This document shows positions 1 through 21,471 of a DNA stretch of 22,048 nucleotides, one piece after another. The notes beneath the pieces were generated by a model that searched no databases, was not told where the DNA came from, and saw only the letters and a program-made list of their open reading frames with translations. Origin of the DNA: a virus. The stretch spans positions 1 to 22,048 of the IMG/VR virus record IMGVR_UViG_3300028596_000072. The stretch is one strand, 5' to 3'. The position numbers and the translations under genes are program-made. Positions within the stretch are counted from its first letter, which is position 1. Every line of letters starts with the position of its first letter.

Positions 1-116
1 ACCAGCCTGCGGTCTCCAGCCGGCCGTCACGCCCACGATCACGCCCTGCCCGTACAGCACTCCCGTTGCTGCGACCCTCCACCGGGCGCGCGTCCGGCTG
101 GAGACCGCAGGCTGGT
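1..116. repeat. 23-bp perfect inverted repeat at the window edge
   Basis: Bases 1-23 are the exact reverse complement of bases 94-116, with 70 bases between the arms. The right arm lies in the DUF6197-like reading frame, where it encodes RLETAGW. The left arm starts at the first base of the window. This may be a real hairpin or a fold-back artefact at a contig end, and the window alone cannot decide. Confidence 0.85.
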
Positions 117-2367: not shown

Positions 2368-3096
2368 GTGAACGACCTCGCCGTGCTCGAAGACTATGCG
2401 TGGCCCGTCTGCGTCACCCCGAACTGCAACCGCCAACTCTGGGTCGCCGAAGCTGGGAGGTGGGCTTGCCATCCATGTGAGGAACGCACCGCGGCCCGCA
2501 TATCCGAACTCCCCGTCCTCTTCCGCCGACTGGACACGACGGCCGCCCTGATGAAGGGCGCCTCCCGTGGCGGCAGTCCGACCTCGGGGAGCCGCATCCC
2601 GCCGATCCCGCCCCGGTTGAACGTCCTCAACCTGGTGTCGCCAGGCGGTGTTGCGGCCCGGCTGTCGGCGATCGAGGACGCGTGGCGGCAGACGCTCGGC
2701 TGGACCATCGCTCCCTGGCGCGGCAGCCCAAGGCAGGCGATCCCGCACCACGTTGAGTTCCTCACCAACAACCTCCTGTGGGCCTGCTCTAGCTATGAGG
2801 CGGTCGGGCAGGACATTGATGACCTGCGACGCCTGCACAGCGAATGCACGTCGGTCGCCAACGATGAGCGGCGTCCGGGCCGGGTGCAGATCGGCAACTG
2901 CCCCGTGCGCGTCGACGACGAACTGTGCTGGACGCCGCTCACCGCCACCGCCGCCAGCCACCGCGTCCGATGCGGCGGCTGTGGGAGCCGTTGGGAGACG
3001 CTGGGGGAGTGGCGGGAACTCCGGGCAGCGCAAGAAGCCGCGCTCGCCGAGATGGCGCGGCAGCAGGAAGCCGAAGCGGCAGGAGTCGCGGCATGA
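2368..3096 (+). CDS. Double zinc-ribbon hypothetical protein, first gene of the Thg1 operon
   Basis: This 242-residue protein starts at GTG 2368, nine bases after GAGGAG. It has two putative metal sites: C15/C20 with C34/C37 near the N-terminus, and C178/C187 with C202/C205 (CGGC) near the C-terminus. A helical middle region lies between them (residues ~95-165, including HHVEFLTNNLLWACSSYEA), and the protein ends in a charged helix. The plan suggests a nucleic-acid or protein adaptor, and similar zinc-ribbon proteins occur in Streptomyces phages and mobile elements without a known role. Its stop overlaps the next start (ATGA at 3093-3096), so it heads a coupled operon that reaches the Thg1-like polymerase. 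A functional link to that enzyme is inference from position. Confidence 0.85.
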   Translation: MNDLAVLEDYAWPVCVTPNCNRQLWVAEAGRWACHPCEERTAARISELPVLFRRLDTTAALMKGASRGGSPTSGSRIPPIPPRLNVLNLVSPGGVAARLSAIEDAWRQTLGWTIAPWRGSPRQAIPHHVEFLTNNLLWACSSYEAVGQDIDDLRRLHSECTSVANDERRPGRVQIGNCPVRVDDELCWTPLTATAASHRVRCGGCGSRWETLGEWRELRAAQEAALAEMARQQEAEAAGVAA

Positions 3097-3425
3097 CGCT
3101 CGACCTGCCATTGGACGTTCGGTACCGGAACGTCGACGGGCCTCTAGCCGCGTACAAGGCCGCACAACCCTGGACTTCTGCGCTCCAGCAAGAGGTGAAG
3201 GAAGCCTTCGAGCGCGACCAAGAGGCGACCAGTCTGACCGCTCCCCTCGTCGCCACCGTCAGATATCGCTGCCCGAGCTGCGAGATCCGCCAGGACGAGA
3301 TCCGGTTCGAATCTCTCGCCTTCTACGCCGACGAGGACTTCCATCAGCTGACCCCGATGGGGCATGGGGAGCTGATCACCATGGTCACCTGTGGGCACCA
3401 GTTCCGGAGGGAGCTCTCGCAATGA
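3093..3425 (+). CDS. Small zinc-ribbon hypothetical protein
   Basis: This 110-residue protein starts at ATG 3093, overlapping the previous stop, with AGGAG at 3081-3085. A helical N-terminal half (QPWTSALQQEVKEAFERD) precedes a CPSC pair (C60, C63) and a TCGH pair (C100, H102) that together form a likely treble-clef or ribbon zinc site. I know no function. It is translationally coupled on both sides (ATGA at 3422-3425). Two zinc-binding proteins in a row before a tRNA-processing enzyme suggest RNA or DNA binding, but that is inference. Confidence 0.85.
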   Translation: MTLDLPLDVRYRNVDGPLAAYKAAQPWTSALQQEVKEAFERDQEATSLTAPLVATVRYRCPSCEIRQDEIRFESLAFYADEDFHQLTPMGHGELITMVTCGHQFRRELSQ

Positions 3426-3655
3426 GCGCCCCCCTGCCTCACGCGGCGGATCGTCTGCCGATCGTGACCGCCAGCGATGGTCAGCCGTACATCTCATGCG
3501 CGGCCGTCCTGGCCCTGCTGCGCGCTATCGCCGAATCCTGCCGCAACCTCGCCGACGACCCCGACTGCACCCTCCCCGGCGCCGGAGCGGCCATCGACAT
3601 CGAAGCCGACGCCCTCGAAGCACGCGCCATCGCCCACACCACGGAGACAGCATGA
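3422..3655 (+). CDS. Small hypothetical protein
   Basis: This 77-residue protein starts at ATG 3422 with a strong GGAGGGAG at 3406-3413. Its stop overlaps the next ATG (ATGA at 3652-3655). A short N-terminal segment with GQPYISCAAVLALLRAIAESC suggests an amphipathic helix, followed by an acidic linker (AAIDIEADALEARA). There is no recognisable domain. The overlaps place it in the same operon as the Thg1-like gene, where it may simply be a linker or a small partner protein. Confidence 0.8.
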   Translation: MSAPLPHAADRLPIVTASDGQPYISCAAVLALLRAIAESCRNLADDPDCTLPGAGAAIDIEADALEARAIAHTTETA

Positions 3656-4437
3656 GCGACAACAGCGCGCTGGGCTACCGCATGAAGGCCTACGAGGCCG
3701 CGCACCGTGCCATCCTCCCGCGCCGCACGTACTGCCTGATCCGTTGTGACGGGCGCTCCTTTCACACCTACCTGCGGGGCTGCCAGAAGCCCTTCGACGA
3801 GCAGTTCATCTCCGACATGGACGCCGTAGCCGAAGCGCTTTGCGCAGAGATCTCCGGTGCTGTGTTCGCGTACACGCAGTCCGACGAGATCAGCGTCCTC
3901 GTCACCGACTTCGCCACCATCCAGACCCAGCCCTGGTTCGACGGCGTCGTCGCCAAGCTGGTATCCATATCGGCATCGCTGGCGACCGCCGTCCTCAACG
4001 AGCGCCGGCCCAACAAACGGGCCCTGTTCGACGCCCGCGTCTTCACCATCAGCGACCCCGTCGAAGTCGCGAACTACTTCCTGTGGCGGCAACGCGACGC
4101 CGTCCGGAACTCGATCAGCATGGCCGCGCAAGCCCACTTCTCCCACAAGCGCCTGCACGGCGTCAGCAGTGCAGGCATGCAGGAACTACTCTTCAGTGAG
4201 GCCGGAGTGAACTGGAACGACTACCCAGACGGCTGCAAGCGCGGACGCATCACCACCCGGCGCACCGGGGAACGGCCCGTCGAGTACGTCGACAAGCGCA
4301 CCAGCCAGACCGTGCAGACAACGGCCGTCCGCTCATGGTGGGAGACGACCGCGGCGCGGCACTTCACCACCAAGCCCGGCGACTGGCTCGCTGAGACGAT
4401 CCCCGAGTTGCCGTCGCTGCGTCGGGACGCGCCGTGA
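3652..4437 (+). CDS. Thg1-like tRNA 3'-5' polymerase (tRNA-His guanylyltransferase family)
   Basis: This 261-residue protein shows the Thg1 family pattern. LIRCDGRSFHTY (residues 29-40) carries catalytic D33 with DGR. FAYTQSDEISVL (72-83) carries the second metal-binding acidic pair (D78, E79). FDARVF and the segment WRQRDAVRNSIS match the C-terminal half of the palm and hand. LLFSEAGVNWND and KRGRITTRR match the conserved tail. Family members add nucleotides in the 3'-5' direction to tRNA 5' ends. Eukaryotic Thg1 adds G-1 to tRNA-His, and Thg1-like proteins repair 5'-truncated tRNAs by templated addition. The RNSI segment replaces the HINN motif of eukaryotic Thg1, which points to the repair-type branch. 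It is coupled by ATGA to the gene before and GTGA to the gene after. The length is typical. No phage tRNA gene was seen nearby. Confidence 0.92.
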   Translation: MSDNSALGYRMKAYEAAHRAILPRRTYCLIRCDGRSFHTYLRGCQKPFDEQFISDMDAVAEALCAEISGAVFAYTQSDEISVLVTDFATIQTQPWFDGVVAKLVSISASLATAVLNERRPNKRALFDARVFTISDPVEVANYFLWRQRDAVRNSISMAAQAHFSHKRLHGVSSAGMQELLFSEAGVNWNDYPDGCKRGRITTRRTGERPVEYVDKRTSQTVQTTAVRSWWETTAARHFTTKPGDWLAETIPELPSLRRDAP

Positions 4438-4769
4438 GCGTCACGCTGCTCAACCTTGCCGACACCTACGAGCGCCAGGCCGACAGAATGGGGACCTCGC
4501 AGCGATGTCGATTGGCGCTCCGAGACTCGGCGGCCCTGTTCCGCCGCATGGTCTGCAATCGGCAGGCCGCCGACCCGACCAGGCTGCAGCTCGACCTCGC
4601 GATGCTCCTCGACGTCGCCGAACGCTGGTGCCGCCAGCATGGCTATCGGGCTGTCGTCGGACACGGCGGCTACATCCTCCAACGCAACGACGAGCCCGCG
4701 ATCGTCGCAGCATTTGGCGAAACGCTGCTGTGGGACGGAGAGCGAATCACGGTGGAGGCGAACCGCTGA
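4434..4769 (+). CDS. Hypothetical protein, last gene of the Thg1 operon
   Basis: This 111-residue protein starts at GTG 4434, overlapping the Thg1-like stop (GTGA). The Shine-Dalgarno is weak, so it probably depends on translational coupling. The N-terminal two thirds look helical (YERQADRMG, LALRDSAALFRRM, LQLDLAMLLDVAERWCRQHGY), followed by a short beta-rich tail (AVVGHGGYIL, TLLWDGERITVEANR). There is no recognised domain. Immediately after its stop comes the 4771-4798 hairpin, which likely ends the operon. Confidence 0.8.
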   Translation: MSVTLLNLADTYERQADRMGTSQRCRLALRDSAALFRRMVCNRQAADPTRLQLDLAMLLDVAERWCRQHGYRAVVGHGGYILQRNDEPAIVAAFGETLLWDGERITVEANR

Positions 4770-4770
4770 G

Positions 4771-4798
4771 CCCCTCATTGCCACTTTGGCAACAGGGG
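4771..4798 (+). terminator. Hairpin closing the Thg1 operon, with perfect inner palindrome
   Basis: CCCCT at 4771-4775 pairs with AGGGG at 4794-4798. Inside lies TTGCCA-CTT-TGGCAA (4778-4792), a perfect inverted repeat. It begins just after the stop at 4767-4769, so it can act as an RNA hairpin. The inner palindrome sits 6 bases before a candidate -35 box, so it could also be a DNA operator. Confidence 0.5.
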
Positions 4799-4828
4799 TT
4801 GCCGCGTGATCAGCGGCGAGCGTATGGT
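4799..4828 (+). promoter_or_regulatory. Candidate promoter for the HTH gene
   Basis: TTGCCG (4799-4804) and TATGGT (4823-4828) are spaced by 18 bases and resemble -35 and -10 elements of a housekeeping-sigma promoter. The spacer holds the palindrome TGATCA (4807-4812), and TTGCCACTTTGGCAA lies just upstream. Transcription would start near 4835, about 70 bases before the HTH gene. Confidence 0.45.
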
Positions 4829-4857
4829 GTGCTCCAATCGATCTCGCTGTGTCTGGA

Positions 4858-4882
4858 GGGCCGCCACCGCTGGCGGCCCTTT
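4858..4882 (+). terminator. Strong hairpin plus T-run in the HTH gene leader
   Basis: GGGCCGCCA (4858-4866) pairs perfectly with TGGCGGCCC (4871-4879) around a CCGC loop, followed by TTT. It lies between the candidate promoter and the HTH start at 4904. It could be an attenuator, or it could terminate a roughly 45-50 nt transcript. Confidence 0.65.
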
Positions 4883-4903
4883 CGCGTACCCGGGGGTGAA
4901 CTC

Positions 4904-5149
4904 ATGCCCCCACACCTCGTCCCCGAGGACCTCGCCGCCTACTGGACCGGCCGACCCGCTACCACCATCCGGCGCTGGGCAGCCGAAGGCAGACTCACCC
5001 GCCACTACGACCCGGCACGGCGACGCAACGGCGTCCTCTACGACCTCGCCGAACTCCCCGAAGCCAAGCGGGACTCGGACACGCGTGAGCTGATCGAACC
5101 CGGGCCCACCCCCGACATCATCCAGACCGCACCCTTACTGGCCGCCTGA
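4904..5149 (+). CDS. Small MerR-type helix-turn-helix DNA-binding protein
   Basis: This 81-residue protein starts at ATG 4904 after GGGGGTG. Residues 8-34 (EDLAAYWTGRPATTIRRWAA, then EGRLTRH) match a winged or MerR-like helix-turn-helix of the excisionase/AlpA size class, in which DLAAYW precedes the turn and TIRRWAAEG is the recognition helix. The following NGVLYDLAEL strand fits the wing. Such proteins act as excisionases or small repressors/activators. No integrase is visible, so either role is open. It follows a promoter-plus-attenuator leader and precedes the tail appendage genes, so it could control the late tail genes; this is inference. Confidence 0.8.
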   Translation: MPPHLVPEDLAAYWTGRPATTIRRWAAEGRLTRHYDPARRRNGVLYDLAELPEAKRDSDTRELIEPGPTPDIIQTAPLLAA

Positions 5150-8022: not shown

Positions 8023-9138
8023 ATGCCCTCCCTCTCCACCTTGATCGACAACTTCAACGACAATGCGATCGGGCCGAACTGGGGCAACAGCTACGGCGGT
8101 GTGAGCGAGTCGGCGGGCAAAGCCCATGTGCCCTGCGGCACCGGCTACGCCGGATACCAGACCGCCTACAGCTGGACCCTCGCCGGCGCCAGCTTCTACG
8201 TCGCCGTCACCACCGTCCCCGCGGCATCCACCGCCACCGAGGCCTACGCGTCCGTGTTCGTCAACCACCCCGACATCGCCACCAACGGCACCCGCATCGG
8301 GTTCGTCATCAACACCGTCAGCAGCCAGTTGAGGTGCAAGAACGACACCGGCTACTTCGACGCCGGCAGCGTCGACCTCACCTACAACGCGACGACCCAC
8401 AAGTTCCTGCGGATCCGCGAAGACGGCACCAACGTCTACTGGGACACCTCACCCGACGGCACCACATGGACGAACCGGCGCACCCTCGCCACACCGGCCT
8501 GGGTCACCACCAGCATCGACACCTGCGCCCTCGACCTGTCCGCGCACCGCGACGCAGGCACCCCAGACGAAGCCCAGTACGACATGGCGAACACGCTCGC
8601 CGACGGCGCCGTCTACACCGGAACCGCCGCAGGCAGCGCCGAATCCGGTGCCACCGCCACCGGCACGCTCGCCGCCGCAGGATCCGCCACCGGCAGCGCA
8701 CAGGCAAACGCCGCCACCGTCGGCCTCACCGTCGTCCACGGCACCGCCATCGGCAGCGCACAGAGCGACGCGTCCGCCACAGGCGAAGGTGACACGCTTC
8801 CGGAGGTGGCTGGATTGACCGCCGGAACCTGGGACCTGAAGATCGAGCAGGGCGCCACCTTCGTCCAGAACTTCACCGCCCTCGACGACGGCTTCTCCTG
8901 GGATGGCTGGACCGCCCGCGCCCAGATCCGCTCCGCGCCCGCCGACAGCGGCGACCTCCTCATCGACGTCACCCCCTACCTCACCGTCGACGGGCCCTCC
9001 GTGCGCATCGCCCTTCCCGCCGCGCAGACGCAGGCCCTCACCCGCAACGGCGTGTGGGACATGGAACTCGTCTCCGGGTCCACGGTCGTGCGCTGGCTGG
9101 AGGGCAAAGTCCTCGTGTCGCTGGAGGTGACCAGGTGA
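8023..9138 (+). CDS. Lectin-like tail protein fused to a tail beta-domain
   Basis: This 371-residue protein starts at ATG 8023 (GGAGG at 8014-8018). Residues 1-195 form a LamG/concanavalin-like domain (LIDNFNDNAIGPNWGNSYGG, AYSWTLAGASFYVAV, RIGFVIN, DGTNVYWDTSPDGTTWTNR). Residues 200-257 are three 20-residue Gly/Ala/Ser repeats (GTAAGSAESG, GSATGSAQAN, GTAIGSAQSD). Residues 265-371 form a beta-domain (LTAGTWDLKIEQGATFVQNF, DGWTARAQIRS, RNGVWDMEL) that in other actinophages occurs as a separate small protein. GGAGG (8802-8806) and TTG 8815 lie in frame at ideal spacing before that domain, so it may also be made separately. It probably contributes to host surface recognition. Its stop overlaps the tailspike start. 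Confidence 0.82.
   Translation: MPSLSTLIDNFNDNAIGPNWGNSYGGVSESAGKAHVPCGTGYAGYQTAYSWTLAGASFYVAVTTVPAASTATEAYASVFVNHPDIATNGTRIGFVINTVSSQLRCKNDTGYFDAGSVDLTYNATTHKFLRIREDGTNVYWDTSPDGTTWTNRRTLATPAWVTTSIDTCALDLSAHRDAGTPDEAQYDMANTLADGAVYTGTAAGSAESGATATGTLAAAGSATGSAQANAATVGLTVVHGTAIGSAQSDASATGEGDTLPEVAGLTAGTWDLKIEQGATFVQNFTALDDGFSWDGWTARAQIRSAPADSGDLLIDVTPYLTVDGPSVRIALPAAQTQALTRNGVWDMELVSGSTVVRWLEGKVLVSLEVTR
8620..8793 (+). repeat. Three tandem 60-bp coding repeats
   Basis: Units begin at 8620, 8680 and 8740. The segments encoding GSATGSAQAN and GTAIGSAQSD share long stretches at DNA level (CGGCAGCGCACAG in both). The period is the same as in the 6679-7197 array of the other lectin-like tail gene, although the unit sequence differs. 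Confidence 0.75.
8815..9138 (+). CDS. Possible internally initiated tail beta-domain (107 residues)
   Basis: In frame with the 8023-9138 gene, TTG 8815 lies 8 bases after GGAGG (8802-8806). The product, starting TAGTWDLKIEQGATFVQN, corresponds to a domain that is usually a separate gene product in actinophage tail regions. This may be a gene fusion that kept the old start site, giving both long and short products. The strong ribosome-binding site inside a coding region is the direct evidence; use of the site is inference. Confidence 0.4.
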   Translation: MTAGTWDLKIEQGATFVQNFTALDDGFSWDGWTARAQIRSAPADSGDLLIDVTPYLTVDGPSVRIALPAAQTQALTRNGVWDMELVSGSTVVRWLEGKVLVSLEVTR

Positions 9139-12098
9139 GAGTCCAGGTCACCGGCGACAACGTGCCCGAAGCCGTCGTCGACGGCCGCCAGGGCATGGTC
9201 ATCGAAGCGAACGTCGGCTCCGTCTCCTCCGTCAACGGCCAGGTCGGCACCGTCAACCTGTCCGGGATCACGGACTGGCTCAACGTGCAGCGCCTCGGCG
9301 CCGCCGGGAACGGGACCACGGACGACACCGCGGCCATCCAGGCCGCCATCGACGCCTGCCCGCCCGGCGGAACCGTCTACCTGCCCCGCCTGTACAAGAC
9401 CACAGCCACGCTCGACCTGAAGAACGGCGTCAGCCTGCGCGGCGCGCACGCCAACCTGATGGTCGGCCCCGGCATGACCGGCACCGAATACGTCAGCGGC
9501 ATCCAGCCCGCCGCCGCCTTCACCGGCACGAGCGTCATCCAGATCATCGGCGACACCGACGGCGGACACCCCGACATCTCCGGCGAGCAGCGCCTCACCG
9601 ACCTGATGCTCGACGGCTCCCAGCTCGGCGGATCGTCGATCGACGGCCTGTACGCGCGCGGCAACGTGCAGAACGTGGTGCTCGAGAACTTCACCGTCCG
9701 GCAGATGCCCAACAACGGCATCGTGACGGCCTCACGCGGCGACGGCACCTACCCGTACTCGTGGCGTCTCCACCACGTCATGGTCGACAACTGCCACGCC
9801 AACGGCCTACTGCTGACCGGCTGCACCGACGTCACCCTCGACGACGTCCAGGTCATCGGCTGCTGGGGCCAGGGCTTCGTCCTGGAGAACTGCACCAACG
9901 GCCAGCTCGACGGCTGCCGCGCCGAATGGAACGGCTCACACGGCTACCACATCACCGGCGCATGGGGCGACTGGACCGGCTCCGGCGGCATGCAGATCAC
10001 CGGCTGCCAAACCGACCGCAACGGCCAACACGGACTACTCGTCGACGCCACCGGCAACACACCCATCCTCGTCACCGGCCTGCAGACCCGGCGCGACGGA
10101 CGCAACGGCGGATCCGGCGGCGGCAACTTCGCCGGCATCGCCGTCATCAACGCCACCGTGCCCGTCACCATCGACGGCGTCACCTGCTACCCCGGCATCG
10201 ACGACGGAGGCGGCAGCACCAACTCGCCGCAGTACGGCGCCCGATTCTCCGGCTCGTCGACGGTCCTCCTCGACAACGCGACCCTCCATGCCAACACCGC
10301 CGGCCTCCTTGACGACGGCACCAACACCCTTGTCTCCTACGGAGCCAACCTCGTCACCATCGCCGGGGCCACCACCGAGGCGACGCGAACCCTGTCGAAC
10401 CCCTACAAGGGCATGGTCGCCGCCCGCTACGTCGTCGCCAACAACGCCTCCGCACGGGAGAAGGCGCGCGCCGACTACCTGTGCGACGGCATCGCCGACC
10501 AGGTGCAGATCCAGGCCGCCATCGACGCCGTGCAAGCCGAAGGCGGCGGCATCGTCCAGCTATCGCCGGGCGGCTTCAACATCGCCGCCACCATCGAGAT
10601 CAACGGCACCCTCGACGAAAACGACCCCAAGACCGTCACCCTCAAGGGCTGCGGTCAGCAGGTCACCGAACTCACCGTCGCATCCGGTGTCGTCGGCATC
10701 ACCATCTCCGACTGGGCGCAAGTCCACCTGGAGAAGCTCTGCCTGTTCATCTCCGGCGCCGGGATCGGCATCAAGTCGGTCGGCGTCAACGACGTCGGCG
10801 ACAACAACAACGTCAGCTTCTGGCACAGCTCGTTCCGCGACCTGCGGATCAACGGCGGCTTCGTCACCAGCTCCACCACCTGGGGCATGGAACTCGGCAT
10901 GCCCTGGCGGTCCGTCTTCGAGAACATCGAGATCGAAGGCTGCCGCAACGGCATAAAGATCATCAACGACGCCACCATGCAGAACGCAGGTGACTGCGTC
11001 TTCAGCCGGTTCTTCGTCGAGATCGTCGGCGCCGGAGGCTACGCCCTCTACGTCGACTCCATCGACGGCAATATGAACCAGAACACCTGGATCGACTTCG
11101 AAGCCGGCGCAGGCACCGGACGGTCAGGCAACACCGGCATCTGGCTCGGCGGCACAGCCGGAACCGCGTCGCAGCGGTTCATCGGCAACCTGAACCTCGA
11201 ACGGTTCGCCACCCTGATCAACGTCGCCAACGGCAACAGCAACGTCTTCGACGCGAACTACATCACCTGCGAAGGCGTCGGAGCCACCAACAAAGGCTTC
11301 GTCACCGGCACGAACAGCTACAACAACACGTTCCGGTCCGCCTACTTCAACATCGCGTCCAGCGACACCGTCAAGGTCATCGAAGACGCCAACACCACGA
11401 GCAACGCGCCGAACATCTTCGAGCGCATCCGGCTGGAGAACAACACCAGCGGCACCGTCACCTACTCGACCACATCGAGCACCGTGCTGCGGGACATCAC
11501 CACCTTCAACAGCGGCAACGCCATGCCGACCGGGCTGCTGCAGTACCCGCTGACGACGGTCAACGACCCCGCGTTCAAGGCGCCCGACCACAACTACCTG
11601 ACCTGGTCCTGCGACCCCGCCTACGCCGATAAAGCCACCTCCGCGGCGGCCACCCTCGGAGCGATCCACCTCACCAAAGTGAAGATCGTCAACCGGGCGA
11701 CCGTCGTCACCAACGTCGTAGCAGCCATCGCCAACACCGTCGCCGGACTCACCAGCAGCCAAAACCTCGCAGGGATCTACGACAGCAGCGGCAACCGCCT
11801 CGCACAGACCGCCGACCAAACCACCGCATGGGGATCCGCCGGCCTCAAGACCATGGCGCTCACCGCACCAGTCACCCTCGCCGTCGGCACCTACTACATC
11901 GCACTGCTCACCAACGGATCCAACACCGTCCAGTTCACCGCCATCGGCGGCGGCTTCGCCGGAACCACCAGCGCAGGCCTCACCACCGGCACAGCGCGGT
12001 CGCTCGTCACCGGAACCGGCAACACCAGCCTCCCGACGACGATCACCCTCGGATCGCAAACCACCAACGGCTACACGCGATTCGTCGCACTCAGCTAG
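9135..12098 (+). CDS. Tailspike-like protein with two parallel beta-helix (pectate lyase-like) regions
   Basis: This 987-residue protein starts at GTG 9135 (GGAGG at 9123-9127), overlapping the previous stop. Residues 1-45 form an N-terminal linker (VQVTGDNVPEAVVDGRQGMV). A first pectate-lyase superfamily segment starts near residue 48, with LNVQRLGAAGNGTTDDTAAI, QAAIDACPPGGTVYLP and many short Asn/Asp/Gly-rich turns typical of right-handed beta-helix coils. A second such module starts near 434 (DYLCDGIADQVQIQAAIDAV, GGGIVQLSPGGFNI). From about 804 a beta-rich C-terminal domain follows (LTWSCDPAYADKATSA, LAGIYDSSGNRLAQTA, GTYYIALLTNG), perhaps for binding or trimer capping. Such spikes bind or cleave surface glycans or teichoic acids. 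Enzymatic activity is not proven by motif. Confidence 0.88.
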   Translation: MRVQVTGDNVPEAVVDGRQGMVIEANVGSVSSVNGQVGTVNLSGITDWLNVQRLGAAGNGTTDDTAAIQAAIDACPPGGTVYLPRLYKTTATLDLKNGVSLRGAHANLMVGPGMTGTEYVSGIQPAAAFTGTSVIQIIGDTDGGHPDISGEQRLTDLMLDGSQLGGSSIDGLYARGNVQNVVLENFTVRQMPNNGIVTASRGDGTYPYSWRLHHVMVDNCHANGLLLTGCTDVTLDDVQVIGCWGQGFVLENCTNGQLDGCRAEWNGSHGYHITGAWGDWTGSGGMQITGCQTDRNGQHGLLVDATGNTPILVTGLQTRRDGRNGGSGGGNFAGIAVINATVPVTIDGVTCYPGIDDGGGSTNSPQYGARFSGSSTVLLDNATLHANTAGLLDDGTNTLVSYGANLVTIAGATTEATRTLSNPYKGMVAARYVVANNASAREKARADYLCDGIADQVQIQAAIDAVQAEGGGIVQLSPGGFNIAATIEINGTLDENDPKTVTLKGCGQQVTELTVASGVVGITISDWAQVHLEKLCLFISGAGIGIKSVGVNDVGDNNNVSFWHSSFRDLRINGGFVTSSTTWGMELGMPWRSVFENIEIEGCRNGIKIINDATMQNAGDCVFSRFFVEIVGAGGYALYVDSIDGNMNQNTWIDFEAGAGTGRSGNTGIWLGGTAGTASQRFIGNLNLERFATLINVANGNSNVFDANYITCEGVGATNKGFVTGTNSYNNTFRSAYFNIASSDTVKVIEDANTTSNAPNIFERIRLENNTSGTVTYSTTSSTVLRDITTFNSGNAMPTGLLQYPLTTVNDPAFKAPDHNYLTWSCDPAYADKATSAAATLGAIHLTKVKIVNRATVVTNVVAAIANTVAGLTSSQNLAGIYDSSGNRLAQTADQTTAWGSAGLKTMALTAPVTLAVGTYYIALLTNGSNTVQFTAIGGGFAGTTSAGLTTGTARSLVTGTGNTSLPTTITLGSQTTNGYTRFVALS

Positions 12099-12110: not shown

Positions 12111-12890
12111 ATGGCCGACGACCTGCTCGTCATCATCCCGACCAGAGGCCGCCCCCACGCCATCCCCGAGATCATGGCCGCGTGGGACGAGACCGGGGCC
12201 ACCGCCGACGTGCTGTTCTGCGTCGACAAGGACGACCCCGAACTCGCCGGCTACAAGGCGCAGGCCAAGGAGCTGGCGGACGACGGCCGGGTGCGGTTCG
12301 TGTTCTGGGCGCGGAAGCGGCTGGTCGGGACGCTGAACCAGGCCGCGGTGAAGAACGCTTCGGACCATCGGTTCCTCGCCTTCATGGGCGACGACCACCG
12401 GCCACGGCCCGCGGCCCAGCCGTGGGATGAGCGGATCCGCATCTGCCTGTCCGGCGGCCCCGGCATCGTCTACGGCAACGACCTACTTCAGGGCGAGAAG
12501 ATGGCCACCGCCGTCGCCATGACCAGCGACATCGTGGCGACGCTCTCCTACATGGCGCCGCCCGCCATGGTCCATCTCTGCGTCGACCTGTGCTGGGTCG
12601 ACTGGGGTCGCGGCATGGGGCGGATCACATACCTCGACGACATGGTCATCGAGCACCTGCACCCCGCCGCCGGGAAGGCGAGCGTGGATGCGGTGTACGA
12701 GGACTGCAACAGCTCCGAGCGTGCCTCGCAGGACGCGGCCGCCTACTACGACTACCGCGACAACGGCGGCCTCGAAGCCGACCTGGACAAGCTGCGGAAC
12801 CTCGTCGCGTACAGCCAAGGTGACGTACTGGCACCCGGGATCACCGTCGCCCGCAACACCACGGGCGAACCCGAGGAGGTGATCGCGTGA
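12111..12890 (+). CDS. Glycosyltransferase family 2-like (GT-A fold)
   Basis: This 259-residue protein starts at ATG 12111 after AGGAGG (12097-12102). It has the GT-A opening LLVIIPTRGRPHAIPEIMAA (residues 5-24) and a later GDD-H motif at 93-96 (FLAFMGDDHRPR), which fits the metal/nucleotide-binding DxD site. A central segment IVYGNDLLQGEKMATAVAM is followed by a C-terminal HLHPAAGKASVD, typical of GT2-like phage enzymes. The Cys-rich HLCVDLCWVDWGRG segment is unusual. Substrates cannot be read from sequence. It follows the tailspike directly and overlaps the methyltransferase (GTGA at 12887-12890), so it likely belongs to a glycan-building or glycan-modifying cassette linked to the tail. Confidence 0.8.
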   Translation: MADDLLVIIPTRGRPHAIPEIMAAWDETGATADVLFCVDKDDPELAGYKAQAKELADDGRVRFVFWARKRLVGTLNQAAVKNASDHRFLAFMGDDHRPRPAAQPWDERIRICLSGGPGIVYGNDLLQGEKMATAVAMTSDIVATLSYMAPPAMVHLCVDLCWVDWGRGMGRITYLDDMVIEHLHPAAGKASVDAVYEDCNSSERASQDAAAYYDYRDNGGLEADLDKLRNLVAYSQGDVLAPGITVARNTTGEPEEVIA

Positions 12891-13483
12891 CCGCCGAAGC
12901 CGTCATCCAGGCCTGGGACCAGGCCGACCCGACAGCGATCCACCCGCTCCGCCGCGTCTCCGAAGACGCCTACTGGGGCTCGGGCAAGGCGCAGGCCGAC
13001 ATGCTCGCCACCGTCATCCCCGACGGGGCGAAGGTCATGGACTTCGGATGCGGTGACGGTCGCGTCGCCATCCCCATGGCCGCGCACGGCTACGACGTCA
13101 CCGCCGTCGACAGTTCCCAGCGCATGCTCAACCGGCTCACCGAACGCGCCCCCGACATCACCACCGTGCAAGCCGCAGCCGACGGCATCGCCGGACACCT
13201 CGGCCGCCGCCGCATGGACGCCGTGTACGCGCTGGCCGTCCTGATCCACCACAGCTACGACGACGGCCTGCACATCATCGGCAAGCTGCGGGCCGCCACC
13301 AAGCTCGGCGGCATCCTCGTCCTCGACTGGCCCGTCTCCGACCAGCCCGGCGAAGCCGACAGTTGGATCGGCGTCACCACCTGGTCCCGCCAGCAGCAGG
13401 ACGACGCGTGCAGCCAGATCGGACTGGAGTCCGTCGACAGCGGCCTGCCGTGGGGCGTCTACCGGGCCGTGAAGACCAACTGA
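12887..13483 (+). CDS. Class I SAM-dependent methyltransferase
   Basis: This 198-residue protein starts at GTG 12887 (GAGGAGG at 12873-12879). Motif I is VMDFGCGDGRVAIPMA (residues 50-65), the motif II acidic residue is in VTAVDSS (D75), and the motif IV region is MDAVYALAVLIHHSYDD. The N-terminal AYWGSGKAQADML is typical of Rossmann-fold methyltransferases acting on small molecules or sugars. The C-terminal part LGGILVLDWPVSDQ continues the fold. Context (a coupled glycosyltransferase before it, an SDR downstream) suggests a sugar or glycan methylase rather than a DNA methylase, since no NPPY-type motif is present. The target is unknown. Confidence 0.85.
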   Translation: MTAEAVIQAWDQADPTAIHPLRRVSEDAYWGSGKAQADMLATVIPDGAKVMDFGCGDGRVAIPMAAHGYDVTAVDSSQRMLNRLTERAPDITTVQAAADGIAGHLGRRRMDAVYALAVLIHHSYDDGLHIIGKLRAATKLGGILVLDWPVSDQPGEADSWIGVTTWSRQQQDDACSQIGLESVDSGLPWGVYRAVKTN

Positions 13484-13503
13484 CTTCGCCACCAGGAGAC
13501 TGC

Positions 13504-13743
13504 ATGAGCACCACCGCCGAGAGCACCCGTCACCTCGGAACCGTCTGGCGCGGCCAAAGGCCGTGGGAATGGAAAGCCCTCTACAGGGGCCACGTGCAGC
13601 CGCGCGGCTACCGCACCTACTGGACGAGCCGCCACCTCTGGCAACTGCACCTCACGCCGGTCCACATCGCGCGAGACTGTGACCGGTGGGAGATCGGCCT
13701 CTGCCTCGGCAAGCGAACGGTCTTCCTCGAGACCCACCGCTGA
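13504..13743 (+). CDS. Small hypothetical protein
   Basis: This 79-residue protein starts at ATG 13504 after AGGAGA (about 13493-13498). It is rich in Trp, Arg and His (TVWRGQRPWEWKALYRGHVQ, YRTYWTSRHLWQLHLTPVHI, CDRWEIGLCLGKRTVFLE) and looks like a small all-beta protein. I recognise no family. It lies between the methyltransferase and the SDR in the sugar cassette, and a role there cannot be judged from sequence. Confidence 0.75.
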   Translation: MSTTAESTRHLGTVWRGQRPWEWKALYRGHVQPRGYRTYWTSRHLWQLHLTPVHIARDCDRWEIGLCLGKRTVFLETHR

Positions 13744-13759
13744 CCAGAGGAACCACCAC

Positions 13760-14011
13760 GTGAAGCCAGTGATCGGTGCATCCGTGCACTACGTCAACCA
13801 CACCCTGTCGGGCGGTGAGGTCGCAGTCGAGTGCGTGGACGCGACGATCACGAAAGTGCATCCGAGCAGTGGCGCTGGCACATTGGCAGATCTTCACGGA
13901 CCCGAGGAAGTGGACCTCGACATCCTCAAGCCGACCGACATGGCCACGGCTGAGCAATGCCGCCACTCCGAGGGCTCGCGACTCAATGGAACCTGGCACT
14001 GGCCACACTGA
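13760..14011 (+). CDS. Small hypothetical beta-barrel-like protein
   Basis: This 83-residue protein starts at GTG 13760 with AGAGGA about 8-14 bases upstream. The N-terminal half, IGASVHYVNHTLSGGEVAVE, CVDATITKVHP and VDLDILKP, has the strand spacing of a small SH3-like barrel seen in many short phage proteins. The C-terminal tail EQCRHSEGSRLNGTWHWPH ends in a His/Trp-rich motif. No function is known. It lies just before the SDR gene. Confidence 0.7.
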   Translation: MKPVIGASVHYVNHTLSGGEVAVECVDATITKVHPSSGAGTLADLHGPEEVDLDILKPTDMATAEQCRHSEGSRLNGTWHWPH

Positions 14012-14029
14012 CCTCGGTGAGGAGGTCCA

Positions 14030-14896
14030 ATGCGCGTCCTCCTCACCGGCCACCGGGGCTTCGTAGGCCGCCACCTGTACGAGGCGATGGACAAGCGCGG
14101 GTGGCGCGTCACCGGCATCGACCTCGCCGACGGACGCGACGCCCTCGACTTCTTCCGCCGCGACGCCAGCAGGTGGGACCTAGCCGTGCACTGCGCGGCG
14201 ATCGTCGGCGGCCGAGCCAGCATCGACGGCAGCCCCCTGGGTGTCGGAACCAACCTCGCCCTGGACGCCTGGTACATGCGATGGCTCATCCGCACCGGCA
14301 CCCCGCGCGCCGTGTACTTCTCGTCGTCTGCGGCCTACCCCGTCGCGCTGCAGCAGCCCGGCGACGTGCGGCGCCTGTACGAAGAGGACATCAACCTCTC
14401 GTACATGGAAGAGCCTGACGCGACCTACGGCTGGGCGAAGCTGACGGGGGAGAAGCTCGCCACCTACGCGGAGGCTGAGGGTTGCCGCATCCTCCTGCCC
14501 CGGCCCTTCAGTGGCTATGGCGAGGACCAGGCGCCGTGTTACCCGTTCCCCGCCTTCGTCCAGCGGGCCAAGCGACGCGACGACCCCTTCGAGATCTGGG
14601 GGAGCGGCGACTCCACCCGCGACTGGATCCACATCGACGACCTGACCGGCGCCACCCTCGCACTCCTCGACAACGAGGTCACCGGACCCGTCAACCTCGG
14701 CTGGGGACGAGCCACTTCGTTCGACGAACTCGCCCACATCGTGTGCACGGCCGCCGGCTACCAGCCCCAGTACAAGCACCGGCACGACGCACCCCAAGGC
14801 GTCCACCACCGCGTCAGCGACCCCACGTGGATGCTCAACCACTACGTGCCCCGCATCACGCTGGAAGACGGTGTGCGGCGGGCGCTCGACGCCTGA
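14030..14896 (+). CDS. NAD(P)-dependent sugar-nucleotide epimerase/dehydratase (extended SDR)
   Basis: This 288-residue protein starts at ATG 14030 behind GAGGAGG (about 14020-14026). The N-terminal Rossmann motif is MRVLLTGHRGFVG (G7, G10, G13). HCAAIVGG follows strand 4, and SSS at 98-100 gives the catalytic Ser/Thr. Y133 and K137 (ATYGWAK) form the active-site YxxxK. Later motifs IWGSGDSTRDWIHIDDL and GPVNLGWGRATSFDEL match the substrate-binding half of GDP-fucose synthase and dTDP-glucose dehydratase-like enzymes. RDWIHIDD is typical of nucleotide-sugar SDRs. The exact reaction is not decided by sequence. Together with the glycosyltransferase and methyltransferase upstream it suggests that the phage makes or alters a nucleotide sugar. 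Confidence 0.88.
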   Translation: MRVLLTGHRGFVGRHLYEAMDKRGWRVTGIDLADGRDALDFFRRDASRWDLAVHCAAIVGGRASIDGSPLGVGTNLALDAWYMRWLIRTGTPRAVYFSSSAAYPVALQQPGDVRRLYEEDINLSYMEEPDATYGWAKLTGEKLATYAEAEGCRILLPRPFSGYGEDQAPCYPFPAFVQRAKRRDDPFEIWGSGDSTRDWIHIDDLTGATLALLDNEVTGPVNLGWGRATSFDELAHIVCTAAGYQPQYKHRHDAPQGVHHRVSDPTWMLNHYVPRITLEDGVRRALDA

Positions 14897-18574: not shown

Positions 18575-19201
18575 ATGCCAGGGACGCTTCAGAGCTGCGA
18601 GCACTGTGGGGGAGACCTGCCGGTGGTGCACCGGTCGGACCGTCGCTACTGCTCGAACTCGCACCGTGTCCTTGCAGCTCGGGCCCGCAAGCGTGAGCGT
18701 GAGGCGGCCCTGGCGGTCGAGCAGCAGGCGCGAATCCCGGCAGAGTTGACGTCCCGTCCTCGCTGGGTGCGACACAAGGACAAGGTGCCGATGCGGACGG
18801 ATGGCCGCTTCGCCTCGGTCAACGACCCGTCGTCCTGGTCGGACTTCCCCACGGCCTCGTCGTCGAAGACTGGCGACGGTGTCGGCTTCGTCCTCACGGC
18901 CGGCGACCGCATCACGGTGGTCGACCTGGACCACGCCGTCGAGGCCGGCCAGGTACTGCCGTGGGCGCAGGCCATCATCGACCGGCTGCCGCCGACGTAC
19001 ATGGAGCGCGGCCGGTCTGGTACCGGCTTGCATCTGTGGTTCCGTGGTGCGGTCCCGGCGGGCCGCAGGGTCCGCAAGGGGGAGTTGGCGGTCGAGGTGT
19101 ACTCGGATCGCCGGTACATCATCGTGGGCGACCGGGTTCCAGGTACGCCTTTGAGTCTTGCCGAGCTGCCTGATGCGGCCGGCTTGATCGCTTCGCTCTG
19201 A
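18575..19201 (+). CDS. Bifunctional DNA primase/polymerase (prim-pol) domain protein, stand-alone
   Basis: This 208-residue protein starts at ATG 18575. An N-terminal zinc finger (C8, C11, C26, H30: CEHCGG...YCSNSH) precedes the archaeo-eukaryotic primase-type prim-pol domain. PAELTSRPRWVRHKDKVPM and SVNDPSSWSDF are family blocks. VVDLDH (DLD at 117-119) supplies the metal-binding acidic residues, SGTGLHLW (148-155) the catalytic His region, and VEVYSDRRYIIVG (173-185) the third acidic residue and C-terminal strand. No helicase is attached, so it is shorter than the usual prim-pol/helicase proteins of mobile elements. It lies next to the terminase and the GATC-rich region, so it may act in replication start or at genome ends. 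Priming activity is inferred. Confidence 0.85.
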   Translation: MPGTLQSCEHCGGDLPVVHRSDRRYCSNSHRVLAARARKREREAALAVEQQARIPAELTSRPRWVRHKDKVPMRTDGRFASVNDPSSWSDFPTASSSKTGDGVGFVLTAGDRITVVDLDHAVEAGQVLPWAQAIIDRLPPTYMERGRSGTGLHLWFRGAVPAGRRVRKGELAVEVYSDRRYIIVGDRVPGTPLSLAELPDAAGLIASL

Positions 19202-19283: not shown

Positions 19284-19727
19284 ATGGGCGCTCGTGGACC
19301 TGTCGGTAAGCGCTCCGAGGAGCGTATGGGCCATCGCTCGAAGAATGAGAAGGACTCGATCACAAAGGCCCCGTCGGGGGCGCCGGCGGATCTGCCGGAC
19401 CTGCCGGAGCCGAGTCCACTGTGGGATCCGATCGCGACGGACTGGTATCTGTCGTTGCGGGAGTCGGGGCAGGCGGCGTTCTATCAGCCGTCGGACTGGG
19501 CGGTCGCCCGGTATGCGGCGGAGCTGATGTCGCGCGTGCTGGACTGCTCCGAGCGCGGACCGAATGGACAGTTGGTCGCGGCGCTGAACTCGGTGATGTC
19601 GTCGCTGCTGACGACCGAGGGCGACCGTCGCCGGGCGCGCATGGAGCTGGAGCGGAAGAAGCCTGCCGGCCGTAGCGACGCCGATGTGACGGTGCTTGAT
19701 GACTACCGCGCCGCCTTCGGTGGCTGA
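19284..19727 (+). CDS. terS: Terminase small subunit
   Basis: This 147-residue protein starts at ATG 19284 behind GGAGG (19274-19278). It opens MGARGPVGKRSEERMGHRSK, the usual basic opening of actinophage small terminases. A Pro-rich linker follows (DLPDLPEPSPLWDPI) and then helices WYLSLRESGQAAFYQPSDWA, ARYAAELMSRVL and LVAALNSVMSSLLTTEGDRR, the oligomerisation and DNA-recognition part. The C-terminus ADVTVLDDYRAAFGG overlaps the large-subunit start by about 30 bases. Small subunits bind the packaging site on phage DNA and hand it to the large subunit; here the GATC-rich region about 0.9-1.1 kb upstream is the natural candidate site. Confidence 0.85.
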   Translation: MGARGPVGKRSEERMGHRSKNEKDSITKAPSGAPADLPDLPEPSPLWDPIATDWYLSLRESGQAAFYQPSDWAVARYAAELMSRVLDCSERGPNGQLVAALNSVMSSLLTTEGDRRRARMELERKKPAGRSDADVTVLDDYRAAFGG

Positions 19728-21471
19728 CCAGGCGGTTGAGGAAGTCCCCGACGTCGTCATCCCTGTCGTTATCGGCCCGTCGTGGAAGCGTGGCGAGGAC
19801 GGGCTGTTCGTCAAGCCTGCGTTCACGCTGGGCTGGCACGTGCTGGTGTGGACGGGCAAGTACTTGCAGCACCGCGGGCAGCGGTGGCGGTACACGAGCG
19901 AGCAGGTCCGGCTGATCCTGTGGTGGTTCGCTCTTGATCCGGATACGGGCGAGTTCGCGTACCGGGATGCTGTGCTGCAGCGCCTGAAGGGTTGGGGCAA
20001 GGATCCGTTCGGGGCGACCTTGTGTGCCGTCGAGTTCGTGGGCCCGTCGCGGTGGCTGGGGCGGGTCGCGGGCCCTGACGACGAGAGTGGCGTGCCGGAG
20101 GGGCAGCCTGTTGGTGAGCCGCATCCGGAGCCGTGGGTGCAGGTGGCGGCGGTCTCGAAGGATCAGACCCGCAACACGATGATCATTTTCGGGTCGTTGT
20201 TCACTCCGAAGGCCCGAGCCGAGTACAGCATCGACGTCGGCAAGGAGATCGTCTACGCCCACAAAGGTGCGGCCCGGATCGAGGCTGTGACGTCCTCGCC
20301 GCGGGCTCTTGAAGGCGGCCGGACGACGTTCACGCTGCTCAACGAGACGCACCACTGGATCGAGTCGAACCAGGGCCACGAGATGGCCGCCACGATCGAG
20401 CGGAACGCCACGAAGTCGGCGGACGGTTCGGCCCGTACTTTCGCCATCACCAACGCTTTCGAACCGGGCGAGGACTCGGTGGCGGAACAGACTCGCGACG
20501 CCTACGAGGCGGCCGAGGCTGGGCGGGCTGAAGACACCGGCATCCTGTACGACTCCCTCGAGGCCCCGCCGGAGGCCAAGCTCTCCAAGCCCTGGCTGGC
20601 GAAGGTGATCGAGGCGGTCCGGGGCGACTCGGTGTGGCTGGACATTGGCCGCATCGTGAAGTCGATCCTTGACCCTCGCAACCCTCCGTCCCGCAGCCGG
20701 CGTTTCTGGTTCAACCAGATCGTTGCCGCCGAGGACGCGTGGATGGCCCGCTACGAGTGGGATGCCTGCAAGCGCGAGGATCTGCAGTTGGCCGACGGCG
20801 ACGAGGTCGTCCTGTTCTTCGATGGCTCCAAGAGCGACGACGCGACGGGCCTGTGTGCCTGCCGCATGTCCGACGGCCTGGTATCGGCTCTGGGCGTGTG
20901 GCAGAAGCCGCCGAACTGGCCGGCGCCGAATACGCCGGGCTACGTGCCTTACCGGGTGCCGCGGGATGAGGTGCATGGCGTGGTGGAGAACGCGTTCGCC
21001 CGCTTCAAGGTGCTGGCGTTCTTCGCGGACCCAGGCTCTGGGCAGGATGACGACGACGGCGAGATGTACTGGGACACCTACATCGACTTGTGGGGTCAGA
21101 CGTGGGGCTCGAAGCTCGCGCTGCGCTCCGTTTCGTCGGGTCCGAAGGCGCACGCGGTGCGCTGGGACATGCGTGATCCCCGCAACCAGGAGACATTCAC
21201 GGAGGCCGTGAAGCGCACCCATGCGGACGTGTTGGAGCGGACGCTCATCCACGACGGGCACAAGGTGCTGCGCACGCACGTCATCAACGCCCGTCGGCGG
21301 ACGAACCGGTGGGGGATCACGATCGGCAAGGAGCATCGTGAGTCTGCACGCAAGATCGACCTCGCGGTGTGCGCGATCGGGGCACGGATGCTGCGCCGCA
21401 TGATCCTCAACTCGCCGAAGCGGCAGAAGAAGAAGGCCACGGGTAAGGGCAGGGTGGTGGTGCTGCGGTGA
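19699..21471 (+). CDS. terL: Terminase large subunit (ATPase and nuclease)
   Basis: This 590-residue protein is started at ATG 19699; TTG 19696 lies directly before it, and translation is probably coupled to terS, whose end it overlaps. The ATPase part has the variant Walker A loop LKGWGKDPFGA (about 96-106) and a Walker B/coupling segment LLNETHHW (about 210-217). The C-terminal RNase H-like nuclease has LFFDGSKSDDATGL (D at about 375) and a late acidic site in KIDLAVCAIGARML (about 550-565). FFADPGSGQDDDDGEMYWDT is a further conserved segment. This is the motor that cuts and pumps DNA into the capsid. Codon use is more G/T-ending than in the genes before 18.1 kb. Confidence 0.93.
   Translation: MTTAPPSVADQAVEEVPDVVIPVVIGPSWKRGEDGLFVKPAFTLGWHVLVWTGKYLQHRGQRWRYTSEQVRLILWWFALDPDTGEFAYRDAVLQRLKGWGKDPFGATLCAVEFVGPSRWLGRVAGPDDESGVPEGQPVGEPHPEPWVQVAAVSKDQTRNTMIIFGSLFTPKARAEYSIDVGKEIVYAHKGAARIEAVTSSPRALEGGRTTFTLLNETHHWIESNQGHEMAATIERNATKSADGSARTFAITNAFEPGEDSVAEQTRDAYEAAEAGRAEDTGILYDSLEAPPEAKLSKPWLAKVIEAVRGDSVWLDIGRIVKSILDPRNPPSRSRRFWFNQIVAAEDAWMARYEWDACKREDLQLADGDEVVLFFDGSKSDDATGLCACRMSDGLVSALGVWQKPPNWPAPNTPGYVPYRVPRDEVHGVVENAFARFKVLAFFADPGSGQDDDDGEMYWDTYIDLWGQTWGSKLALRSVSSGPKAHAVRWDMRDPRNQETFTEAVKRTHADVLERTLIHDGHKVLRTHVINARRRTNRWGITIGKEHRESARKIDLAVCAIGARMLRRMILNSPKRQKKKATGKGRVVVLR

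What the first reader, a model, noticed from the sequence alone, without database searches (positions are those of the whole stretch)
3652..4437. Phage-encoded Thg1-like 3'-5' tRNA polymerase inside a coupled operon
The protein keeps all metal-binding residues (D33, D78, E79) and the family tail, so it is probably active. RNSI replaces the eukaryotic HINN motif, pointing to tRNA 5'-end repair rather than only G-1 addition. A phage gain from repairing tRNAs cut by host defence or stress nucleases is a plausible and little-studied role. The rest of the coupled operon encodes unknown proteins.
Basis: partly seen in the sequence, partly recalled or inferred. Interest (0 to 1): 0.75.

Follow-up and report, generated by a model that had tools for sequence, protein, structure and literature searches.

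The report
Phage RNA-repair polymerase (Thg1-like)
This Streptomyces-type phage carries an intact copy of a known enzyme that adds nucleotides to the front (5') end of RNA, most likely to mend damaged tRNA during infection; such phage copies are already common in databases, so this is a good example rather than a new kind of system.

Summary
ORF 3652-4437 (+, 261 aa, intact) is a Thg1-like 3'-5' polymerase (TLP). It matches Pfam Thg1 and Thg1C; its closest solved relative is Bacillus thuringiensis TLP (46% identity, 1.1 A over 202 columns, on a pLDDT-93 model). The residues named for the metal, activation and transfer sites of BtTLP are all kept, and dN/dS is about 0.25. The 4-base overlaps with neighbours are real. 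The record is a phage fragment.

It is a TLP, not a eukaryotic-type Thg1. No tRNA-His was identified in 40 TLP-bearing virus records, and at most 4 of 296 Streptomyces genomes have a Thg1 hit. In other actinophages TLP genes co-occur with, and often sit beside, RNA-repair genes (PNKP phosphatase, RlaP, RNA ligase); the window and its nearest relatives lack them. In its own phage family the gene sits in a variable cargo slot.

It is not new in kind: PHROG 4717 names the family, 125 named phage records and at least 592 IMG/VR stretches hold relatives, and an RNA-repair role against host defences was proposed in 2010. Side finding: a recurrent coupled active-site swap (DGRxFH to DIRAAH) in other phage TLPs, not in this one.

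The parts
3652..4437 (+). Thg1-like protein (TLP), 261 aa; metal ligands D33 and D78 with E79, activation-site K46/S77/H38/M157, transfer-site R19/R31/K102/R129
   Evidence: Pfam and PHROG matches; closest solved relative BtTLP; model pLDDT 93 and 1.1 A to 4kgm_B; residue check
2368..3096 (+). Upstream gene, PHROG 1467 (unknown function; weak match to a phage DNA-binding family), conserved left border of the cargo slot
   Evidence: PHROG match 3.9e-17; homologs at 59-73% identity in most related phages
3093..3425 (+). Small gene of unknown function, overlapping its neighbours by 4 bases
   Evidence: Gene call; no Pfam, PADLOC or NCBIfam match
3422..3655 (+). Small gene of unknown function overlapping the TLP start by 4 bases; homologs in L304 (no TLP) and L308 (with TLP)
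   Evidence: Gene call; homologs
4434..4769 (+). Small gene of unknown function overlapping the TLP stop by 4 bases
   Evidence: Gene call; no family match
4904..5149 (+). Right border of the variable cargo slot (81 aa, unknown function)
   Evidence: Homologs at 53-92% identity in L306, L307, L308, L309
5714..6121 (+). Phage head/fibre-type protein (PHROG 240, Pfam Gp80)
9135..12098 (+). Minor tail protein
   Evidence: PHROG 11699, 1.4e-100 (on the frame from 9054); start from the gene call
19720..21471 (+). Large terminase subunit, phage hallmark
   Evidence: PHROG 9, 4.7e-74 (on the frame from 19696); about 47% identical to Streptomyces phage terminases

Best explanation
The gene encodes an active bacterial-type Thg1-like protein carried as accessory cargo by a Streptomyces-type phage. 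By analogy with BtTLP, it takes the 5'-monophosphate end of a shortened or broken RNA, activates it with ATP or GTP, and adds nucleotides in the 3'-to-5' direction opposite a template strand, so restoring lost 5' nucleotides of tRNAs (the acceptor 5' end, or possibly the 3' half of a cleaved tRNA). The phage would gain by keeping translation going when host or stress RNases damage tRNA. Shown here: family, fold, intact sites, purifying selection, phage location, cargo-slot position, no identified phage tRNA-His, and linkage of TLP to RNA-repair genes in other actinophages. Inferred: catalysis by this very protein, its RNA substrate, and the counter-defence benefit.
For: Closest to BtTLP, whose described preference is repair of 5'-truncated tRNA (PMC6471195; PMC3701042), by sequence and fold. 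All named BtTLP functional residues kept. dN/dS 0.24-0.26. Separate from yeast and Candida Thg1 at 100/100. No identified tRNA-His in 40 TLP virus records and 22 with no tRNA match. At most 4 of 296 Streptomyces genomes have a Thg1 hit. RlaP in 9/40 and PNKP phosphatase domain in 8/40 TLP records against 0/24 TLP-free relatives; either partner 13/40 vs 0/24, p=0.0009; 5 of 13 within 2.5 kb of the TLP, matched by 7 of 20,000 random placements. RNA ligase in 4 and RtcB in 2 TLP records. Annotated polynucleotide kinase or RNA ligase near the TLP in Mycobacterium phage Pound and Rhodococcus phage Weasels2.
Against: The window and its nearest TLP-bearing relatives (records of L002 and L014) have none of the repair partners tested. 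The TLP-bearing and TLP-free sets differ in phage type and record size. No biochemical or infection data exist for this protein. A distant relative, L043, has a tRNA-His near its TLP.
Confidence: 0.66

Rival explanations
1. The enzyme mainly adds or restores G-1 on tRNA-His, host or phage, as eukaryotic Thg1 does.
For: The family is annotated as tRNA-His guanylyltransferase, and bacterial TLPs can add G-1 to tRNA-His lacking it in vitro (PMC6471195). L043 has a tRNA-His close to its TLP.
Against: Most bacterial tRNA-His genes encode G-1 (PMC6471195). No tRNA-His was identified in 40 TLP-bearing virus records. The anticodon-reading HINN motif is absent.
Confidence: 0.13
2. The enzyme works on RNAs other than tRNA (for example 5' ends of phage or host transcripts), or activates 5' ends for ligation rather than extending them.
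For: TLPs have relaxed RNA specificity (PMC6471195); a 5'-App ligation role was suggested (PMC2904730); RNA ligase genes accompany some phage TLPs.
Against: No direct evidence; ligases are found in only a minority of TLP records.
Confidence: 0.15
3. The gene is a passenger without benefit to the phage.
For: It sits in a variable cargo slot and is absent from all but one of 29 records related by terminase; chromosomal actinobacterial copies fall among the phage copies in the tree.
Against: Intact frame and functional residues, dN/dS about 0.25, and wide recurrence in unrelated phages.
Confidence: 0.06

Closest known systems
Bacillus thuringiensis Thg1-like protein (BtTLP, PDB 4KGK/4KGM)
   Same: Fold (1.1 A over 202 columns, 46% identity), catalytic carboxylates, activation and transfer residues, KNSI/RNSI in place of HINN
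   Different: Here encoded by a phage in a cargo slot, with an extra C-terminal segment of about 60 residues beyond the aligned part
PHROG 4717 phage 'tRNA-His guanylyltransferase' (e.g. in Bacillus phage G, Mycobacterium phage Pound, Rhodococcus phage Weasels2)
   Same: Same family in phages
   Different: All 125 matched named records are under 60% identical, the top-listed about 49%; the closest copies are in unnamed IMG/VR actinophage records at 77-81%
Eukaryotic Thg1 (yeast, Candida, human)
   Same: Same superfamily fold and carboxylates
   Different: No HINNLYN anticodon motif; separated from yeast and Candida in the tree with 100/100 support
Phage RNA-repair sets with PNKP, RlaP and RNA ligase
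   Same: TLPs of several related actinophages co-occur with these genes, some adjacent
   Different: None of these partners in the window or in the records of L002 and L014

Membership tests
Thg1-like protein (TLP) | Thg1 catalytic domain and Thg1 C-terminal domain | tested here: met
   PF04446 and PF14413 over cut-off
Thg1-like protein (TLP) | Three conserved carboxylates (BtTLP D30, D75, E76) | tested here: met
   D33, D78, E79
Thg1-like protein (TLP) | Activation-site and transfer-site residues of BtTLP (K43, S74, H35, M158; R16, R28, K99, R131) | tested here: met
   K46, S77, H38, M157; R19, R31, K102, R129
Thg1-like protein (TLP) | TLP fold | tested here: met
   Model pLDDT 93.0; 4kgm_B best hit, E 4.5e-25
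Thg1-like protein (TLP) | Groups with TLPs, apart from eukaryotic Thg1 | tested here: met
   100/100 branch to yeast and Candida Thg1; archaeal MaTLP has a long branch and an unsure place
Thg1-like protein (TLP) | Templated 3'-5' addition, preferring 5'-truncated tRNA | not testable with these tools
   Needs an enzyme assay
Eukaryotic-type Thg1 (tRNA-His G-1 transferase) | HINNLYN anticodon-reading motif | tested here: not met
   RNSISMA at that place
Phage RNA-repair cassette (TLP with PNKP, RlaP or ligase) | Repair partner genes in the same record | tested here: not met
   None of RlaP, HAD_PNKP, RNA_ligase, RtcB in the 22-kb window, which is a fragment
Tailed phage of actinobacteria | Phage hallmark genes | tested here: met
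   Large terminase, head/virion and minor tail proteins; terminase nearest to Streptomyces phages among the named phages listed

The most novel reading that the evidence does not exclude
Phage TLPs are general RNA-repair polymerases that undo the damage of tRNA-cutting defences, working with PNKP, RlaP and ligase on cleaved tRNA halves as well as on acceptor 5' ends; in some phages the phosphate-binding loop of the activation site has been re-tooled repeatedly by a coupled swap (G34 to I/M/V with F37 to A/G), which would point to an arms race or a changed activating nucleotide at this site.
Probability: 0.25. Interest if true: 0.6.

Novelty: new member of a known kind. Interest (0 to 1): 0.33.

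Why it matters
If the repair role is true, phages carry a reverse (3'-to-5') polymerase that most Streptomyces lack and use it to undo tRNA damage, a suggestion that has stood untested since 2010. The linked PNKP, RlaP and ligase genes name candidate partners, named phages of laboratory hosts (Mycobacterium phage Pound on M. smegmatis) make it testable, and the natural active-site variants offer comparisons for how the activation step works.

Tried and rejected
tRNA-His co-carriage: no tRNA-His identified in 40 virus records; a distant relative, L043, has one in its flank, so this is not universal. Conserved operon partner: none; neighbours change from phage to phage. Defence-system membership: no PADLOC match for the TLP or its coupled neighbours. 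NCBIfam: no match for the TLP. Variant motif as phage-only: rejected, because L118 (Lachnospiraceae MAG) carries it with no evident phage genes nearby (judged by eye on the translations). Variant motif as recent short gene conversion: unlikely, because the codons differ among variants. Near-identical named phage: none. Host chromosome instead of phage: rejected.

Full report
Observation. The reading frame 3652-4437 is intact, matches Pfam Thg1 and Thg1C above their curated cut-offs and PHROG 4717. By sequence its closest solved relative is BtTLP (4KGK, E 4.7e-53), far ahead of yeast, Candida, human and archaeal members. The AlphaFold2 model (pLDDT 93.0, pTM 0.87) superposes on BtTLP with ATP at 1.1 A over 202 columns with 46% identity. 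The gene overlaps its upstream and downstream neighbours by four bases, as do the two genes before it.

Active site. The BtTLP paper (PMC3701042) names D30, D75 and E76 (carboxylates), K43, S74, H35 and M158 (activation site), and R16, R28, K99 and R131 (transfer site). The window has D33, D78, E79; K46, S77, H38, M157; R19, R31, K102, R129. RNSI stands where eukaryotic Thg1 has HINN, and BtTLP has KNSI there. dN/dS against the close relatives L002 and L014 is 0.26 and 0.24. The protein is therefore very likely an active TLP. In a 45-row tree it lies in a group of actinobacterial phage and chromosomal copies, separated from yeast and Candida Thg1 at 100/100.

How common it is. Of 296 Streptomyces genomes, 4 have a Thg1 hit; two of these were genomes I had already picked for having one, and one is a partial match. 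Phage TLP is thus a known, widespread gene that the usual host lacks.

Where it sits. Records found through the window's terminase (80 listed, 42-100% identity, several of 85-90 kb) mostly lack TLP: of 29 searched, 1 has it, with the caveat that several are fragments. Comparing gene order, the stretch between the homolog of 2368-3096 and the homolog of 4904-5149 (or the structural genes that follow) is a variable slot. It holds one small gene in L307 and L306, other genes in L304, L305 and L309, and the TLP in the window, in L308 (80%) and in L310 (81%). The TLP is accessory cargo.

What it might act on. Of 40 TLP-bearing virus records, 22 have no tRNA match, and none of the tRNAs that ARAGORN could name in the others is tRNA-His. 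Next to TLPs of other actinophages I found RlaP and a PNKP-type HAD phosphatase, in L133 and L045 directly downstream of the TLP (the L133 pair confirmed by Pfam). RlaP occurs in 9 of 40 TLP records and the PNKP phosphatase domain in 8 of 40; neither occurs in 24 TLP-free relatives of the window's terminase. Either partner: 13/40 against 0/24, p = 0.0009; 5 of the 13 lie within 2.5 kb of the TLP, reached by 7 of 20,000 random placements. RNA ligase over the cut-off is in 4 TLP records, in one of which ligase, TLP and PNKP lie within about 5 kb, and RtcB is in 2. Mycobacterium phage Pound has an annotated polynucleotide kinase as the third gene downstream of its TLP; Rhodococcus phage Weasels2 has an annotated 2'-5' RNA ligase as the third gene downstream. 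This agrees with the bacterial neighbourhoods of kinase, MACRO domain and ligase reported in 2010 (PMC2904730). The two record sets differ in phage type and size, so the co-occurrence test is only suggestive; the proximity test does not depend on that. The window and the records of its nearest TLP-bearing relatives (L002, L014) have none of these partners, so this TLP works alone, with host enzymes, or with genes outside the 22 kb.

Interpretation. The best reading is RNA 5'-end repair by a BtTLP-type enzyme, probably on tRNA, useful to the phage under tRNA damage. The enzyme class is shown by sequence and fold; substrate and benefit are inferred. That phage Thg1 might serve RNA repair aimed against host defences was printed in 2010 (PMC2904730), and RNA-repair genes of jumbo phages, Thg1 among them, were reviewed in 2021 (PMC7824862). 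Novelty is therefore low.

Side finding. In some other TLPs the D-G-R-x-F-H motif that holds the first metal ligand becomes D-I-R-A-A-H, D-M-R-G-A-H, D-M-R-A-G-H or D-V-R-S-A-H. G34 and F37 change together in nine distinct sequences. On a tree built without the motif residues after the Asp, 11 rows need at least 9 changes, 5 of them forced by starred branches (quick method, several long branches). In BtTLP the main-chain amides of the residues aligned with 36 and 37 bind the phosphates of the activating nucleotide (PMC3701042), so the swap lies in the activation site. Most cases are in viral or prophage-like contexts, with L118 as a likely chromosomal exception. The window copy has the ordinary motif.

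Noticed in passing
L005, L009/L048, L014, L022, L052, L063/L134, L118, L135, L192 (TLP residues equivalent to window 33-38): Recurrent coupled active-site swap: DGRxFH becomes D[IMV]R[AGS][AG]H (one case ends in R), G34 and F37 always changing together; at least 9 changes on the tree, 5 forced by well-supported branches. Catalytic carboxylates are kept. No explanation found.
   Followed up: partly
L133:6001-7990 and L045 (two genes downstream of the TLP): TLP, RlaP nucleotidyltransferase and PNKP-type phosphatase stand in a row, a compact RNA-repair cassette in an actinophage and in an actinobacterial contig.
   Followed up: yes
window 3097-4903 and the same place in L304-L310: Variable cargo slot between a conserved PHROG 1467 gene and the structural genes of this phage family; it holds different small genes in each phage. 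Their functions are unknown.
   Followed up: partly
window 12111-14896: Glycosyltransferase-like, methyltransferase and nucleotide-sugar epimerase genes behind the tail genes, conserved across much of the phage family; possibly for virion or surface sugar modification.
   Followed up: no
window 18575-19201: Primase/polymerase (Prim-Pol) N-terminal domain just before the terminase genes.
   Followed up: no
L043:3508-11807: A distant TLP-bearing virus contig with 11 tRNA genes within 12.7 kb, including a tRNA-His.
   Followed up: no
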